A DNA stretch of 64,000 bases from Kosakonia sacchari SP1. GTDB taxonomy: Bacteria > Pseudomonadota > Gammaproteobacteria > Enterobacterales > Enterobacteriaceae. Positions 55,591-64,000 of the stretch are shown piece by piece. A model generated the notes under the pieces. The model was not told the origin of the DNA. It worked only from the letters and a program-made list of their open reading frames with translations, and searched no databases. Numbering within the stretch: position 1 is the first letter of the stretch; every line of letters starts with the position of its first letter. The position numbers were made by a program, and so were the translations under genes. The stretch covers positions 2,666,001 through 2,730,000 of the forward strand of contig NZ_CP007215.2 in assembly GCF_000300455.3 (NCBI RefSeq), given 5' to 3'.

Positions 55591-56340
55591 ATGTTCACGA
55601 CAGCTTATGCTATGAATGCGTCCGCAGGTTTTCAGTCATCCATTTCCGATGGCAGTAGAACTACACTGGGTAAAGGGCAAGCAGTGACGTATACTAATCT
55701 GCCTAACCAGCCAGTAGCGATTGTTGTTTATAATAATACTGGCAACACCACGCCATTTAATGTCGCTTATAATAACCAAAAACCGCAGAATTACAGCGTG
55801 CAGTCAGTTCAGGGTCAGGGGTTTTCACTGGGCCTCGCGTATCTTATTGACCCCAGCGTAACGAAAGCGTTTGAAATTACCGTATCCGTACCCGATCAGG
55901 CGCAGCAGAATTCGTCAGTCGACGTGTATGCCGTTAGCCTGTTCTTACCATTGAGCGGAATTAATAACATTCAAATTCCGACCAATGGTAATGCGGTTTC
56001 TTTTAGTGGCTATTCTCGCGCTTACGCAACACCGGATCTGGCATGGTACGATTTAAATATCAACTCAACCAGCACCGGTTTGGTTGGGCTGTTTTTTGAA
56101 GACAGCACAATCACGGTGGTAGGGATTAATATGCCGAAAGAATCCAGCGCGGCATTAAAGAAAGTCGTTATTAATACATCCGGGAGCGGTGTTCCGGATA
56201 GTAATATTGCGATTGTGGTTGAAAGTGGCAACCTTTATCAGAATTCAATTTTTGGCACATCGAGCCAAATTGTTTATTCCCCGGTATCACCGGTAAATTC
56301 CGTTAGTGATGGCAGCATTTCTCTACAAAAAATCTCATAA
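55591..56340 (+). CDS. Unrecognised 249-residue beta-rich protein
   Basis: I do not recognise this protein. It is 249 residues, has no signal peptide, no membrane helix and no cysteine, and is rich in Ser, Thr, Asn, Val and Gly, as in beta-sandwich proteins. Two halves look related: about residues 26-125 (GKGQAVTYTN... AFEITVSVPDQAQQNSSVDVYAVSLFLP) and 126-230 (TNGNAVSFSG... ALKKVVINTSGSGVPDSNIAIVVES), each ending in a similar Lys/Val-rich strand, a polar turn and a Val-rich strand. AGAGGA precedes the ATG, and a terminator follows, so it is a single-gene unit. Flanks are much more AT-rich than neighbouring core genes. It takes the position next to the tRNA-Val pair. It may be acquired. Confidence 0.75.
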   Translation: MFTTAYAMNASAGFQSSISDGSRTTLGKGQAVTYTNLPNQPVAIVVYNNTGNTTPFNVAYNNQKPQNYSVQSVQGQGFSLGLAYLIDPSVTKAFEITVSVPDQAQQNSSVDVYAVSLFLPLSGINNIQIPTNGNAVSFSGYSRAYATPDLAWYDLNINSTSTGLVGLFFEDSTITVVGINMPKESSAALKKVVINTSGSGVPDSNIAIVVESGNLYQNSIFGTSSQIVYSPVSPVNSVSDGSISLQKIS

Positions 56341-56955: not shown

Positions 56956-57032
56956 GCGTTCATAGCTCAGTTGGTTAGAGCACCACCTTGACATGGTGGG
57001 GGTCGTTGGTTCGAGTCCAATTGAACGCACCA
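56956..57032 (+). tRNA. valV: tRNA-Val(GAC)
   Basis: A 77-base cloverleaf with encoded CCA. Acceptor GCGTTCA pairs with TGAACGC, D-loop AGCTCAGTTGGTTAGAGC, anticodon GAC in CTTGACATG, and TPsiC loop GGTTCGAGTCC. It is essentially the E. coli valV sequence. Confidence 0.98.
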
Positions 57033-57044
57033 TTCTTTTTCAGT

Positions 57045-57121
57045 GCGTCCGTAGCTCAGTTGGTTAGAGCACCACCTTGACATGGTGGGGGTCGATGGTT
57101 CGAGTCCATTCGGACGCACCA
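57045..57121 (+). tRNA. valW: tRNA-Val(GAC), second copy
   Basis: A 77-base tRNA 12 bases after the first, with the same body but a different acceptor pair GCGTCCG / CGGACGC, as in E. coli valW. The two are co-transcribed. tRNA genes are common integration sites; the giant adhesin lies directly downstream. Confidence 0.98.
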
Positions 57122-57297: not shown

Positions 57298-60200
57298 TCA
57301 GAAGCCGACTTTCAGCGTGATTTGACCGCCGTAGCCGCCGGTGCCTGCGTCGTCGATACTCCGGGTGTAACCCGCGCGCACCCCGAGGGTAACGTTATCG
57401 CGGATCTGGCCGTCGATGCCGACATCCAGCGAGGCAGCGGTGCCGTCCTGATCCGGATTGAACGCGACCTCGCTGCCTGCTACGCCTGGCGCGCTGACGT
57501 TCACTGAGCCCTTCGAGTCGAAGGTCTGGATGAAGGACGGACGCACCCACCAGCTTACCGGTACCGGTTTGCCTGTCTCTTTCAGCGTCGCGTTGTTGCC
57601 CAGACGCAGACCGGCACGCACCTGCTGGCTGTGACCGTCGCCGAACTGCACGTCTGCAACGTCATCATTGCCATCTTTCAGGTTCACACCGCGATACTGG
57701 TACTGCACCTGCGGTTCCAGCACCAGGCCGCCGCCGATTTCAAACGGCAGACCGGTTTCGAAAGAACCGACATAGCCCCAGCCGTGGGTTTTCAGACCGT
57801 CGCCATCGCGCGGATTGGTGTCGAAGTTGTGGCGTGTCCCCTGGGCCACTACGTCCATCCACCAGCCGCTCTCATGCACACCGTTGAGATAGAGGCCGCC
57901 GCTGTAGGCGTCGTCGCGTACCGTACCGGCTTTCGACTTGTCGTTACGCTGCACATCGACGGCAGAAAGACCCGCCGCACCGTACACCCCAACAGTCCAT
58001 TCCATGGCAGAGGCCGAGCCCTGCCACAAATCGCTACCGATCTGCAGGAAGGTATAGCCGCCTTTACTATCCGGCGTGTTGCCGTTGCGTAGATCGTTGC
58101 TGCCGTGATCGTGGCTCAACTGACCGGCCTGGAAACGGGCCCACATGTTGCTACCGCTTTCGGCTGCGGTACGCGCCGCATAGCGACGGGCATCCAGCGA
58201 GCCGAGCAGCGCACTGTCGTAGTCCATTGCCTGCGCATAGACGGAGCTATAGAGATACGTCGCCGAACGGTAGTTCTGCGGGCCGTTCTCGTTGCTGCCG
58301 GCTGCAGCGGTGGTCAGATACCAGCTCTCGTCGGCGCTGCCCTGTTGCAGGGTGTAGTTATACGCCCCCGCCTGCAGGCTGCCGTTGAGGCTGAAAGCAT
58401 CATCGGTGGTGGTCGCGCCGTTGATGGCATTCACCACCTGAATACCGTTGCCGGTGGTACGCGCACCCAGACCGCCCTGGCTGCGAATGGCGATCCGCGT
58501 ATTACCGGTCGCGGTGCCGCCATCCAGCACCAGGCTGTCACTCACTACGTTATTACCGTTAAACAGCGTGTTCAGGGTAATGGTCCCGCCATTGCCCACC
58601 AGGTTGGTGACGGTCAGGGTTTTCGGGACAAACGTTCCGGTCGGTGCCTGGTAATCGATCGAGCCGCCCAGTGTCAGGTTATTGAGCAGGGAGTCTGCGG
58701 TCATCAGCCAGCTTGAACCAGCATCAACGGTCAGGTCGGTCGGGTCAATCATCCCGGTAAGCGTAGTGCCGTTGGTCAGCTGCAGCGAGGTGCCGCGCTG
58801 GGCGATGATGTCGGTCACGGCATCCAGCCCGCTGAACACCAGCGTACCGCTCTGCAGGTAAGTGCCGCCCGCCTGATTAAGTGTGCCGCTCAGAGTCAAC
58901 GTGTTATCACCTTCTTTATACAGCGTACCGTTACCGTTGATGGCCGCGTTTACGGTGCTGGCACTGGTGTCGGTGGTGATGCGCAGTTCGCCGCTGTTGT
59001 TGACGTTACCAGCAAGCGTTGCGCCATCGTTGACTTTGGTGACCCCGGTCAGCATACCGCCCTCGGCGACGCTCAGCGTACCGTTCTCGCTTACCACAGT
59101 GTTGTTGGCGCTGCCGTCAGCGGCAACCGACAGCAGACCGCCGCTTTCCAGCAGCACGTTATCCGCAATTTTATTAGCAATGGAGAAGCTGCCAAGCGCG
59201 TTGGTGCCGTTGAGCGTGGTGTCGGTGCCCGCCATCAACGCGGCGCCGCTATTGAGATTGATATTGGTGACCGTTGCGCCATCTTCCAGCGCCAGCATGC
59301 CGCCGCGCTCAATCGCCGTCAGATCCGCCGTGCCCCCGGCGCGAACGAACTGGGCACCGCCTTTGCTGACGGTAGTGGCAATTGCCGTGCCGCCGAAAGT
59401 GACACTCTGGGTGCCGTTTTCGCTGACGGTGGACGAAGCGACGGTGCCGCCCTGATTGACCACCTGATCGCCAACCACCTGGTTGTCGATAACGATCGCC
59501 CCGTCATTCACGTTCTGGATCCCGCCCTCACGGATAATGGTGGAGATCACCGTCCCGCCGCTGTTAACGTTCTGGGTACCGCCACCGTTAATGGTGGTGC
59601 GAGTGGCGGTACCGCCGTTCAGCACGTTCTGGATCCCGCCAGCCTGGATGACGGCAAGTATCGATTCACCGCCGCTATAGATATTCTGAATACCGCGCTC
59701 GTAGATTGCCGTGCGAGTCGCAGCCCCGCCGCGATAGACGTTCTGCACGGCGTTCGCTGAAAGATCGGTATCAACGGCACTGCCGCGCACATTCTGCTGG
59801 CTGGAGTTGATCATCGAAGTGTTCACCGCCGCAGCACCCGCTGCGATGTTCTGCACTGCAAAATCATCCATCAGGTTGTTTTGCGCACGCCCACCGCTGT
59901 ACACATTCTGGATGCTGTTACGGTTACGGGTATCGGTCACCACGGCGCCGTAGTAAATCCCCTGAACCGCACCGTCGCTCAGCACGGTAGAGGTGGCTGT
60001 ACCTCCGCTAAAGACGCGCTGTTCCGCCCGGGTGATTTCCGATCCGGTGGTGGTGCCAAGGACTTCCTGAATGCCGCCATCAATCACCACAGAGACTTCG
60101 GCATTGGCATTTTTGTTGACAACCTGACGCCCGCCGTTTTTCACGATGCTGACAATCGAGGTACCGTCAACCACCTGCAGACCGCCATCAACAAAGGTGA

Positions 60201-63200
60201 AGTCGGTGACGCCGCCGGAGGCAACATTTTGTCTGCCGCCGGTTGAGATAGTGCCGCCATAGGTGTAACCGCCCGAGTTAACATTCTGCACGCCGCCCTT
60301 CTCGACGCGTGTTTCGAAGGCCTGCCCGCCGCTGCCGATATTTTGCGTACCGCCCAGCAGGCGCGCAGCGAAGGATTTCGCGCCATTATTGACGTGCTGC
60401 TCACCGCCATTCATCAGGGTGGAGATCGCCACAGCAGAGTTGCTGAGGATCTGCGTCCCGCCTGCGTTAATCACGCTCTGACGTGCCCAGCCATACGGGT
60501 CAACGATCTGCGCCCCGCCGTTATTAATCACCGCGTCGAACGACTGACCATGTACGCGCTGTACGCCGCCGCTGTTAATCAGCGTGCCGCTAGCCTGACC
60601 GCTCTTGGTCACCAATTGTACCCCGCCGTCGCTGATGCTGGTGCCGGAAGCCGAACCTTCCACCAGTTGCGTACCGCCGCCGAACACCGTGCCATCGGAC
60701 GCCGCGCCGCCGGCTGAGACGTGTTGCACCCCACCGTTATTCACGATCGAACCGGCAGCGAGGCCACCGTAGTTGACGATTTGCTGGCCGCCGTCATTGA
60801 TCACGGACGAGATGGCCGTACCGTCTACGCTCTGCACACCGCCGCTGTTGATGTGGGTATCGGTAGTTTTACCGCTCCCGGCTACCAGTTGCGTACCCCC
60901 ATCGTTCACGCTGGCACCGGAGGCAGTACCTTCCACCAGTTGCTTGCCGCCGCCGAAGATGGTGCCGTCAGACGCCGCGCCGCCGAGATTGATGTGCTGC
61001 AGACCGCCGCTATTCACCGTGGTGCCTGCCGCCAGACCACCTTTGTTCACCAACTGGATGCCGCCGTTGCGCACCACCGCCGAGGTCGCGTTACCATCAA
61101 CACTCTGCACACCGCCGCTGTTGATCAGGGTGCCGGTTGCTTTCCCGGTGGTCATGACGATCTGATAGGCGCCATCGTTCAGGCTGGTACCGGACGCCGT
61201 GCCCGCCACCACCTGTTTACCGCCGCCGAAGATGGTGCCATCAGACGCTGCGCCACCAAGGTTGATGTGCTGCAGACCGCCACTGTGAACGGCGGTACCT
61301 GCCGCCAGGCCGCCGTTATTCACCAACTGGATACCGCCATTGCGTACCACGGATGAGGTGGCGCTGCCGTCAACGCTCTGCACGCCGCCGCTGTTGATTT
61401 GGGTGCCGGTGGTTTTGCCGCTGGCCTGCACGATCTGCAGACCGCCATCGCTGACGCTGGTCCCGGACGCAGTCCCTGCCACCACCTGTTTACCGCCGCC
61501 GAAAATGGTGCCATCAGACGCTGCGCCACCAAGGTTGATGTGCTGCAGGCCACCGCTGTTGACGATAGAACCCGCGGCCAGCCCACCGCTGTTCACCAAC
61601 TGCACGCCGCCATTGTTCACCACGGCGGAGGTCGCCGAACCGTCAACACGCTGCAAACCGCCACTGTTGATAAGCGCTCCCGCAGCAATGCCGCCCACCT
61701 GGACGTGCTGAATGCCGCCGTCGCCAATAACCGTGTCGCCCGCCATACCCGCGACCTGCTGCGTTCCTCCTAGCAGCGTCGTTTTTGAGGCAGCGCCGCC
61801 GGCACGGACAATCTGCACACCATCTTTATCGACGCGGGTGTCGTTCGCATGACCGCCACTGCGGATCAGCTGTTTACCGCCGGCGTAGACGATCGTGCCA
61901 TTAGCCGTGCCGTCAACATCCTGGAAACCGCCGTCATAGATTTTGCTGTCGATGGTTTTGCCGGTAACGTGAACTTGCTGCACACCGCCAGAGTCCACGC
62001 GGGTGTCGGATGCCGTGCCTTCGACAATCTGGGTACCGCCAAACAGCAGCGCATCCGAGGCAGCGCCGCCTTCGTTGATATGCTGCAAACCACCGGCATT
62101 AACCAGCGAGCCCGCGGCAAGCGCGCCGGAGTGAATCAGTTGCACCCCGCTATCATTGACCACAGCGGAGATCGCCGTGCCGTCTACCGCCTGAGTGCCA
62201 CCGCTGTTGATGATGGTGTCGATAGCTTTACCGGTTATCTGTACAAGCTGGTAAGCGCCGTCATTGATGCTGGTGCCGGAGGCCGTACCGGCAACAACTT
62301 GCCGACCACCGCCAAACACCGTGGTGTCGGATGCAGCGCCGCCTTCATTGATATGTTGCAGGCCGCCACCGTTAACGGTCGCGTTATCCGCCAGCCCACC
62401 GCTGTTCACCAACTGGATACCGCCGTCATAGATAACCGATGAGTTGGCTGTGCCATCCACGCGCTGCAGGCCGCCTTCATTAATCAGCGATCCGCTGGCG
62501 CTGCCACCCACCTGAACGTGCTGTACGCCGCCGGCACCGATAATGGTATCTGCCGCTACGCCCGCCAGTTGCTGAATACCGCCCAACAGCGTGGTGAAGG
62601 CGGTTGACCCACCTGAGAGTACATTCTGAATCCCGCCACTGTTGATCACCGCGCTGGTGGCAGCGCCACCGCTGCGGACTTTCTGCAGGCCGCCGTCGTT
62701 CACTTCAGCGGAGAAGGAGACGCCGTCTACATCCTGTTTACCGCCGGCGTTAACCACCGCATCACTGCTCATGCCGCTGGCGTGGATCTGCTGCAAACCG
62801 CCGTTATTAATGATGGTGCCGGAGGTGGTGCCTTCCACTAGTTGGGTGCCGCCGAGCAGAATGGCGTCGGATGCTGCACCCCCTTCGCTGATATGTTGCA
62901 GACCACCGGTGTTCACCACACCGCCCGTCGCCAGCCCGCCACGATTAACCTGCTGCGTCCCTCCAGCATTGACGACAGAAGAAATGGCCTGGCCGTCTAC
63001 GGTCTGCGTGCCGCGATTGTTGATGATGGTTCCGGTGGATTTGCCGGTTTTCTGCACCAGCTGCGCACCGCCATCGTTGACGCTGGTGCCGGATGCGGTT
63101 CCCGCCAGTACCTGGGTACCGCCGCCAAACACCACGCCGTCGGAAGCTGCCCCGCCCTGATTAATATGCTGAACCCCGCCGCTGTTCACGATGGTGCCCG

Positions 63201-64000
63201 CCGCCAGCGCGCCGCTATGCACCAGTTGGGTACCGCCGCCGTTGACCACTGCGGAGATAGCGGTGCCGTCTACGGTCTGCGTACCGCGATTGTTAATGAT
63301 GGTGCCGGTGGCTTTACCGGTTTGCTGAACCAGTTGCGCACCACCGTCGTTGAGGTGCGCACCGGATACCGTGCCGGCCACGACTTGATTGCCGCCGCCA
63401 AAGATGGCGGTGTCGGCCGCGGAACCGCCGACGTTAACGTGCTGGACACCCCCGCTGTTTACCGTCGCGTCCTGAGAGAAACCAGCGCTGTTGATGAGCT
63501 GGATGCCGCCAGCGTTAATGACGCCCTGGACGGAACTGCCGTTAACGGCTTGCACGCCGCCAGTGTTAATAATCGTCTGGCTTGCCACCCCGCTTTCCTG
63601 CACAGTCTGCACACCGCCAGCACCGACAATGGTGCTATTAGCCTTACCGGCGACTGCCTGCTTGCCGCCGCTGTTAAGCTGCGTGCCTGTTGCCGTCCCG
63701 TCCACTTCAACGATCTGTGTCCCGTCAGTGACAACGGTACCCCTCGTCTGGCCGTTCTGCCGCACAATCTGCGAACCGCCATCCTGAACTCGGGTATCCA
63801 CGGTCTGACCGCCCGCCACTATCTGGGTGCCACGGGTGCTGATGGTATGGTTGGTGGTTAAGCCGCCAGGACGCACGTTCTGTACGCCTTCCTGCACCAC
63901 CTCATCCTGCGTCGAACCAGTGACATCAGGGGTGAACGCCATCGCCCCGCTGCTTGCGAACAGGCCGCCCACCGCCGCTGAGATCAATACCGCGCCGCCT
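57298..64000 (-). CDS. Giant AIDA-I/Ag43-like autotransporter adhesin (5' end outside the window)
   Basis: A type Va autotransporter of more than 2230 residues. The frame is open to the window edge; the segment GGAVLISAAVGGLFASSGAMA before FTPDVTG looks like the hydrophobic core and cleavage site of an extended signal peptide, so the true start lies beyond 64000. The passenger (about 59230-63880) is about 85 short repeats of 16-19 residues of AIDA type (xxVNxGGxQxVxxGGxAxx) that would fold as a long beta-helix. A linker/autochaperone region (58290-59230) and a C-terminal 12-strand barrel (57298-58290, MWARFQAGQLSH... ending ITLKVGF with terminal Phe) follow. No cysteine is present. Such proteins mediate aggregation, biofilm and host attachment. 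In K-12 the smaller AIDA-repeat protein YdhQ lies on the other side of these tRNA genes. Confidence 0.93.
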   Translation of the reverse strand, partial: GGAVLISAAVGGLFASSGAMAFTPDVTGSTQDEVVQEGVQNVRPGGLTTNHTISTRGTQIVAGGQTVDTRVQDGGSQIVRQNGQTRGTVVTDGTQIVEVDGTATGTQLNSGGKQAVAGKANSTIVGAGGVQTVQESGVASQTIINTGGVQAVNGSSVQGVINAGGIQLINSAGFSQDATVNSGGVQHVNVGGSAADTAIFGGGNQVVAGTVSGAHLNDGGAQLVQQTGKATGTIINNRGTQTVDGTAISAVVNGGGTQLVHSGALAAGTIVNSGGVQHINQGGAASDGVVFGGGTQVLAGTASGTSVNDGGAQLVQKTGKSTGTIINNRGTQTVDGQAISSVVNAGGTQQVNRGGLATGGVVNTGGLQHISEGGAASDAILLGGTQLVEGTTSGTIINNGGLQQIHASGMSSDAVVNAGGKQDVDGVSFSAEVNDGGLQKVRSGGAATSAVINSGGIQNVLSGGSTAFTTLLGGIQQLAGVAADTIIGAGGVQHVQVGGSASGSLINEGGLQRVDGTANSSVIYDGGIQLVNSGGLADNATVNGGGLQHINEGGAASDTTVFGGGRQVVAGTASGTSINDGAYQLVQITGKAIDTIINSGGTQAVDGTAISAVVNDSGVQLIHSGALAAGSLVNAGGLQHINEGGAASDALLFGGTQIVEGTASDTRVDSGGVQQVHVTGKTIDSKIYDGGFQDVDGTANGTIVYAGGKQLIRSGGHANDTRVDKDGVQIVRAGGAASKTTLLGGTQQVAGMAGDTVIGDGGIQHVQVGGIAAGALINSGGLQRVDGSATSAVVNNGGVQLVNSGGLAAGSIVNSGGLQHINLGGAASDGTIFGGGKQVVAGTASGTSVSDGGLQIVQASGKTTGTQINSGGVQSVDGSATSSVVRNGGIQLVNNGGLAAGTAVHSGGLQHINLGGAASDGTIFGGGKQVVAGTASGTSLNDGAYQIVMTTGKATGTLINSGGVQSVDGNATSAVVRNGGIQLVNKGGLAAGTTVNSGGLQHINLGGAASDGTIFGGGKQLVEGTASGASVNDGGTQLVAGSGKTTDTHINSGGVQSVDGTAISSVINDGGQQIVNYGGLAAGSIVNNGGVQHVSAGGAASDGTVFGGGTQLVEGSASGTSISDGGVQLVTKSGQASGTLINSGGVQRVHGQSFDAVINNGGAQIVDPYGWARQSVINAGGTQILSNSAVAISTLMNGGEQHVNNGAKSFAARLLGGTQNIGSGGQAFETRVEKGGVQNVNSGGYTYGGTISTGGRQNVASGGVTDFTFVDGGLQVVDGTSIVSIVKNGGRQVVNKNANAEVSVVIDGGIQEVLGTTTGSEITRAEQRVFSGGTATSTVLSDGAVQGIYYGAVVTDTRNRNSIQNVYSGGRAQNNLMDDFAVQNIAAGAAAVNTSMINSSQQNVRGSAVDTDLSANAVQNVYRGGAATRTAIYERGIQNIYSGGESILAVIQAGGIQNVLNGGTATRTTINGGGTQNVNSGGTVISTIIREGGIQNVNDGAIVIDNQVVGDQVVNQGGTVASSTVSENGTQSVTFGGTAIATTVSKGGAQFVRAGGTADLTAIERGGMLALEDGATVTNINLNSGAALMAGTDTTLNGTNALGSFSIANKIADNVLLESGGLLSVAADGSANNTVVSENGTLSVAEGGMLTGVTKVNDGATLAGNVNNSGELRITTDTSASTVNAAINGNGTLYKEGDNTLTLSGTLNQAGGTYLQSGTLVFSGLDAVTDIIAQRGTSLQLTNGTTLTGMIDPTDLTVDAGSSWLMTADSLLNNLTLGGSIDYQAPTGTFVPKTLTVTNLVGNGGTITLNTLFNGNNVVSDSLVLDGGTATGNTRIAIRSQGGLGARTTGNGIQVVNAINGATTTDDAFSLNGSLQAGAYNYTLQQGSADESWYLTTAAAGSNENGPQNYRSATYLYSSVYAQAMDYDSALLGSLDARRYAARTAAESGSNMWARFQAGQLSHDHGSNDLRNGNTPDSKGGYTFLQIGSDLWQGSASAMEWTVGVYGAAGLSAVDVQRNDKSKAGTVRDDAYSGGLYLNGVHESGWWMDVVAQGTRHNFDTNPRDGDGLKTHGWGYVGSFETGLPFEIGGGLVLEPQVQYQYRGVNLKDGNDDVADVQFGDGHSQQVRAGLRLGNNATLKETGKPVPVSWWVRPSFIQTFDSKGSVNVSAPGVAGSEVAFNPDQDGTAASLDVGIDGQIRDNVTLGVRAGYTRSIDDAGTGGYGGQITLKVGF
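60314..63590 (-). repeat. About 12 tandem 273-bp (91-residue) super-repeats in the adhesin gene
   Basis: Five short repeats (17, 19, 19, 17 and 19 residues: VDG-, QLV-, QHIN..GGAASD-, FGGG..VAGTASG- and NDGG..TGK-type) form a 91-residue unit. Equivalent motifs occur at 60661, 60934, 61207 and 61480, and again at 63106 and 63379, all exactly 273 bases apart. Copies between about 60,650 and 61,700 are nearly identical; outer ones are more diverged. Confidence 0.92.

What the first reader, a model, noticed from the sequence alone, without database searches (positions are those of the whole stretch)
57298..64000. Giant AIDA-repeat adhesin with a higher-order 273-bp repeat
The passenger is built on two nested periods: units of 16-19 residues, and a five-unit super-repeat of exactly 91 residues. 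Motif spacings of 273 bases are exact in four successive copies and again in two copies 2 kb away. Because 273 is a multiple of three, unequal recombination would change fibre length without breaking the frame. The nearly identical inner copies suggest recent duplication or gene conversion. A defined five-rung super-repeat may encode a periodic binding surface along the beta-helix.
Basis: partly seen in the sequence, partly recalled or inferred. Interest (0 to 1): 0.72.

Follow-up and report, generated by a model that had tools for sequence, protein, structure and literature searches.

The report
Modular, probably sugar-coated bacterial surface fibre
A Kosakonia-group bacterium carries a gene for a very long surface protein, likely a sugar-coated sticky fibre, whose shaft is made of twelve copies of a five-turn module, and related bacteria carry the same protein with whole modules more or fewer.

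Summary
The reverse-strand ORF starts 101 bases beyond the window end and encodes 2,267 residues: extended signal peptide, AIDA/strand-loop-strand repeats, autochaperone, beta-barrel. Sixty rungs form twelve five-rung super-repeats, seven of 91 and five of 90 residues; none of 500 rung-order shuffles reaches this periodicity. A third level was missed: 271-residue triplets (91+90+90).

The upstream gene, outside the window, is a TibC/Aah-type heptosyltransferase, so this is an aah-aidA-type operon; heptosylation and adhesion are inferred.

'Recent duplication or gene conversion' is not supported for the array as a whole. Copies differ at 44-77% of synonymous sites and, apart from SR9-SR10, cluster by position, not genome (ten genomes). 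The array predates these lineages.

Copy number still varies: 12, 11 or 9 super-repeats in ten genes, differing by exactly 91 or 271 residues, through at least four changes; two junctions are visible. Five further genes from other genera carry 12-16.

Higher-order periods occur in 44 of 120 listed AIDA homologues, so the principle is not unique. Strain-level variation and binding were not testable.

The parts
57298..64000 (-). Autotransporter gene, part inside the window; the whole gene is 57298..64101 in window numbering (2,267 codons, ATG outside the window)
63946..64000 (-). End of the extended signal peptide region (Pfam ESPR, residues 8-52); the rest lies beyond the window
63502..63771 (-). 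SR0, cap super-repeat, 90 residues (18-19-17-19-17)
63229..63501 (-). SR1, 91 residues (A)
62416..63228 (-). First triplet A-b-b (SR2 62956-63228, SR3 62686-62955, SR4 62416-62685), 271 residues
   Evidence: SR2-SR4 have no counterpart in K. quasisacchari
61603..62415 (-). Second triplet A-b-b (SR5 62143-62415, SR6 61873-62142, SR7 61603-61872), 271 residues
60511..61602 (-). Terminal array of four A units (SR8 61330-61602, SR9 61057-61329, SR10 60784-61056, SR11 60511-60783); 4 or 3 copies in the ten compared genes
59239..60510 (-). Irregular AIDA rungs without super-repeat, same rung lengths in all ten compared genes
58348..58689 (-). Autochaperone domain AC_1 (residues 1805-1918)
57349..58623 (-). 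Match to autotransporter outer-membrane beta-barrel model TIGR01414 (residues 1827-2251; overlaps AC_1 at its start)
56956..57121 (+). Two tRNA-Val(gac) genes, the conserved boundary of the locus

Best explanation
This is the autotransporter half of an aah-aidA-type operon: a 2,267-residue protein predicted to fold as a long beta-helix, likely heptosylated by the TibC-type enzyme encoded just upstream and likely working as a self-associating adhesin fibre, whose nine closest compared genes differ from it in length only by whole 91- or 271-residue modules. Shown: domain order, enzyme gene next door, nested 17-19 / 90-91 / 271-residue periods, old divergence between copies, and module-sized length differences with two clear junctions. 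Inferred: the modules were gained and lost by unequal homologous recombination where copies still share runs of tens of identical bases. Each module would add five beta-helix rungs, about 2.4 nm at a textbook rise of 4.8 angstrom (recalled), and would leave the reading frame and helix register intact. Inferred from AIDA-I, TibA and Ag43: serine heptosylation, secretion through the beta-barrel, and cell-cell or surface adhesion. Not shown: any ligand, any expression, any change within one species.
Against: Gene conversion or another recombination route could give the same junctions. The AlphaFold model is moderate (best pLDDT 73.7; the other four 47.9-55.5). No species has more than one genome in the counts, so live length variation is not shown. 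In the more distant genera small indels besides whole modules occur (for example an 89-residue cap in L040). The protein falls below the curated cut-offs for AIDA-I (780 of 1,200 bits) and Ag43 (958 of 1,200) themselves. Adhesion and heptosylation rest on relatives.
Confidence: 0.75

Rival explanations
1. One reading: a recently amplified, rapidly varying array kept alike by gene conversion, as in 'periscope' surface proteins.
For: 44-nt exact run between SR8 and SR9 in the window gene; an SR8-like patch in unit 9 of Bisph1; triplets 81-83% identical with exact runs up to 78 nt in L038, of another genus; copy number does differ between species.
Against: pS between own copies 0.44-0.77; units cluster by position, not genome, except around SR9-SR10.
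Confidence: 0.1
2. The five-rung unit is kept because it forms a periodic binding or glycan surface along the helix.
For: Rung-length pattern conserved in ten of ten genes apart from whole-module differences; low pN between orthologous units; serine four residues before the next rung's glutamine sits mainly at the ends of rungs 1 and 4 (6 of 12 each, against 1, 1 and 0 of 12).
Against: No ligand known. Copies differ from one another at up to 42% of non-synonymous sites. Other serine columns are more constant, in rungs 2, 3 and 5 (73-81%). Structural matches show only the fold.
Confidence: 0.25
3. Copy-number differences are assembly collapse of repeats.
For: The 9-copy gene (G008 / K. quasisacchari) lies on a contig of 119,840 bases of a fragmented assembly.
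Against: 12-copy and 11-copy genes both occur on chromosome-sized contigs (own 4.90 Mb; G005 5.04, G012 4.65, G011 5.04 Mb). In the window gene copies are at most 82% identical with exact runs of at most 44 nt, which ordinary reads can separate.
Confidence: 0.04

Closest known systems
AIDA-I / TibA heptosylated self-associating autotransporters with Aah / TibC (BAHT family)
   Same: Enzyme gene directly upstream; 19-residue imperfect repeats; autochaperone; beta-barrel; best structural match TibA.
   Different: Below the curated AIDA-I cut-off; 85 rung starts, of which 60 are ordered in five-rung and fifteen-rung modules.
Antigen 43
   Same: C-terminal part aligns to the Ag43/Cah model over residues 1555-2267; solved Ag43 structures match by sequence and fold.
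   Different: Below the Ag43 equivalog cut-off, 958 of 1,200 bits; its own adjacent heptosyltransferase gene; far longer repeat region.
Periscope proteins (length-variable repeat stalks)
   Same: Single-chain surface protein, repeats over 50 residues, repeat number differs between relatives; the review lists a beta-helical autotransporter, ShdA, with 4-6 repeats (PMC9704523, passages).
   Different: Repeats are not highly identical (49-82% DNA), and variation is seen between species only.
Other AIDA-repeat proteins with higher-order periods
   Same: 44 of 120 listed homologues have a period of 30-400 aa at 50% or more identity in a 180-aa window.
   Different: Only one (P0002, 92 aa) has its best such period within 85-96 aa; P0014 has 91 as its second-best.

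Membership tests
Heptosylated AIDA/TibA-type autotransporter | Strand-loop-strand (AIDA) repeats | tested here: met
   TIGR04415 659.6 bits, 48 stretches; PF16168 335 bits
Heptosylated AIDA/TibA-type autotransporter | Signal peptide, autochaperone and beta-barrel of type Va secretion | tested here: met
   ESPR and AC_1; TIGR01414
Heptosylated AIDA/TibA-type autotransporter | Adjacent Aah/TibC-type heptosyltransferase gene with the named active-site residues | tested here: met
   TIGR04414; residues kept; adjacency in 10 of 10 distinct loci
Heptosylated AIDA/TibA-type autotransporter | Beta-helical passenger | tested here: met
Heptosylated AIDA/TibA-type autotransporter | Serine heptosylation and adhesion or aggregation | not testable with these tools
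   Needs mass spectrometry and cell assays
AIDA-I proper (NF033176) | Score above the curated cut-off | tested here: not met
   780.2 bits against 1,200
Ag43/Cah proper (NF033177) | Score above the curated cut-off | tested here: not met
   957.7 bits against 1,200
Periscope proteins | Highly identical tandem repeats | tested here: not met
   49-82% DNA identity, pS 0.44-0.77
Periscope proteins | Repeat number varies between close strains | tested here: inconclusive
   Varies between species; no second genome of any one species was available
Periscope proteins | Repeats fold as individual domains | not tested
   The modules are predicted to be turns of one continuous beta-helix; a single module was not folded alone

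The most novel reading that the evidence does not exclude
A heptosylated beta-helix fibre whose length evolves in two nested quanta, five rungs and fifteen rungs, with the A-b-b pattern fixing a repeating glycan and self-association register: only register-preserving length changes survive, and growing divergence between modules has all but locked the array in most lineages.
Probability: 0.28. Interest if true: 0.6.

Novelty: new variant of a known kind. Interest (0 to 1): 0.42.

Why it matters
It gives a readable record of how a bacterial adhesin fibre changes length: modules, junctions and lineages are all visible, and among the ten closest genes the length differs only in whole five-rung or fifteen-rung steps. 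That makes it testable whether fibre length and heptose spacing on a beta-helix tune aggregation, using natural 9-, 11- and 12-copy alleles. It also corrects a common inference: a clean repeat period in a genome need not mean recent or rapid variation.

Tried and rejected
Recent duplication was tested by synonymous divergence and a unit tree and rejected for the array as a whole. Chance was rejected by rung-order shuffles. Assembly collapse was considered and judged unlikely. E. coli: 5,375 of 5,426 genomes had a match but none with a place covering 80% of the query; in the 20 listed rows the match is 3% of the query, over tRNA-Val genes. The protein search did not return the close Kosakonia proteins; its best hit is 43% identical over 61% of the query (180 proteins, 120 listed, 7,991 candidates scored), so what is said of the wider spread of super-periods rests on those 120. 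Within-species copy number could not be tested: the genome search and genome contigs hold one genome per species, and no metagenome scan was allowed. Dam/OxyR switching as in agn43 (recalled): two GATC in the 994 nt between enzyme gene and pykF, not pursued. Bisph1 and the cowanii group both have no clear SR9 counterpart; whether through one event or two is not settled (the printout was cut in part there). In print: searches on Kosakonia + autotransporter, autotransporter repeat copy number, higher-order repeat, intragenic repeats and periscope listed no paper whose title or shown abstract start describes this architecture; for these only listings were read, plus passages of the papers named in the report.

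L001, L003-L009, L011-L014 and L028-L035 are pieces superseded by longer fetches. L010 (a 48-nt match in G004) was not used. SR0 was left out of the column table (102 of 112 units). Autotransporter ORFs in L042-L045 (948-1,540 aa) show no 91/271 plan (L045 has period 92) and were not segmented.

Full report
1. The gene. The reverse-strand ORF runs to the window's edge. In the window's own genome (4,902,027 bases, one contig) the whole gene is L002:3299-10102(-), 2,267 codons from ATG; the window ends 101 bases short of its start. Its parts, in order, are an extended signal peptide, AIDA/strand-loop-strand repeats (48 stretches of TIGR04415), an AC_1 autochaperone and an autotransporter beta-barrel. 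The window's genome carries no name here. Of the six named loci found, four are titled Kosakonia; the closest is K. pseudosacchari JM-387 at 96%, with K. quasisacchari and Siccibacter colletis at 89% protein identity in the best segment.

2. The neighbour. Upstream, outside the window, lies a 419-codon gene on the same strand: TIGR04414 'autotransporter strand-loop-strand O-heptosyltransferase', 576 bits against a cut-off of 200, and TibC of solved structure 4rap at E 1.6e-166. The residues that PMC4358343 names for catalysis and sugar binding (passages) are kept: D110, T226, K230, R286, W305. The enzyme gene ends 31 nt before the autotransporter in 10 of 10 distinct loci, each with two tRNA-Val genes on the other side. 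In the genus, 8 of 15 genomes carry the enzyme, the same 8 as carry the autotransporter; the other 7 give only matches under 25 bits. In the family, 12 of 246 genomes have the enzyme at E 1e-60 or better.

3. The repeat. Segmenting the passenger at its conserved glutamine gives 85 rung starts. Shuffling rung order 500 times never reaches the observed identity at 273 nt (0.561; shuffle mean 0.352, sd 0.020, maximum 0.420) or at 813 nt (0.494; maximum 0.412).

4. Age of the copies. Own copies are 49-82% identical in DNA. The proportion of differing synonymous sites is 0.44 (SR8-SR9) to 0.77, non-synonymous 0.09-0.42. The same position in other genomes is closer: pS 0.07-0.27 against G005, 0.18-0.35 against JM-387, 0.37-0.52 against Siccibacter colletis, with pN 0-0.14. 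In a tree of 112 units from ten genomes the units gather by position, not by genome; only SR9 and SR10 are mixed. The array was therefore built before these lineages parted, and most copies have since evolved separately under constraint. Local exchange exists: a 44-nt exact run between SR8 and SR9 in the window gene and an SR8-like middle in unit 9 of Bisph1.

5. Copy number. The ten distinct genes encode 2,267 (own, G005, JM-387, S. colletis), 2,176 (Bisph1, K. oryzendophytica, G012, G011, K. cowanii 282A-S69) or 1,996 residues (K. quasisacchari), all open. The differences are exactly 91 and 271 residues; rung lengths elsewhere are identical in the ten. In K. quasisacchari the sequence passes from SR1 to SR5 at a super-repeat boundary, so one triplet is missing. 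In K. oryzendophytica unit 10 is SR10-like at its start and SR11-like after a switch between about nt 50 and 80. Bisph1 and the cowanii group have no clear SR9 counterpart. On a ten-genome tree, with the oryzendophytica chimera kept as its own state, at least four changes are needed; counting length alone gives three. Some forks inside the sacchari group are open, so the minimum counts depend on weakly supported order there. In other genera of the family the same building plan recurs in five further genes: L037 as own; L038 cap-(Abb)x3-A3; L039 cap-(Abb)x4-A3; L040 cap-Abb-A-(Abb)x2-A3; L041 the same with A4, with a few small indels besides. Triplets within L038-L041 are 68-83% identical in DNA, most alike in L038. 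On a fifteen-genome tree super-repeat number changed at least seven times.

7. How it would work. By analogy with AIDA-I, TibA and Ag43: serine heptosylation, export through Sec and the beta-barrel, then adhesion and aggregation. PMC3835316 (passages) reports that unglycosylated TibA loses adhesion to cultured epithelial cells but still aggregates. PMC8993888 (passages) reports head-to-tail association of Ag43. None of this was tested for the present protein. Serine in the N-S-G-G setting of a mapped TibA acceptor (PMC4358343 passage) is concentrated at the ends of rungs 1 and 4 of the module (6 of 12 each, against 1, 1 and 0 of 12 for rungs 2, 3 and 5), but other serine columns are more constant, so a glycan ladder is only a suggestion.

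8. Against what is known. Higher-order periods are common in AIDA-repeat proteins: 44 of the 120 listed homologues (shuffled controls for 30 of them reach at most 0.211). Variable-length repeat stalks are a named class, periscope proteins, defined by highly identical repeats (PMC9704523, passages); that feature is not met here. I therefore place the find as a variant of the heptosylated self-associating autotransporters, with an unusually clear, mostly old, module-wise length record.

Noticed in passing
L046-L052 (stretches upstream of pykF in the 7 genus genomes without the operon): In 6 of 7 the same two tRNA-Val genes lie about 4.6-5.1 kb from pykF with other genes between; in L046 these resemble an alcohol dehydrogenase, an amino-acid ABC permease and binding protein, and a HisN-like phosphatase, and L049 has ORFs of similar size. 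In L047 no tRNA was found in the 10 kb taken. The interval looks like a slot with exchangeable cargo.
   Followed up: partly
window 55591-56340 (+): A 249-aa ORF between mdtK and the tRNA-Val genes matches no Pfam or NCBIfam family.
   Followed up: partly
window 61873-62142 and 62686-63501: Against G005, super-repeats SR1, SR2, SR3 and SR6 differ at only 7-11% of synonymous sites, the other eight at 17-27%, which hints at past exchange of this stretch between lineages.
   Followed up: no
L042-L045: Four other family genomes have a 61-62% identical enzyme beside shorter AIDA-type autotransporter ORFs (948-1,540 aa) without the 91/271 plan; one (L045) has a period of 92.
   Followed up: partly
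L038 (another genus of the family): Here the 271-residue triplets are 81-83% identical in DNA with exact runs up to 78 nt, so more recent exchange or duplication is likelier there than in the window's gene.
   Followed up: partly
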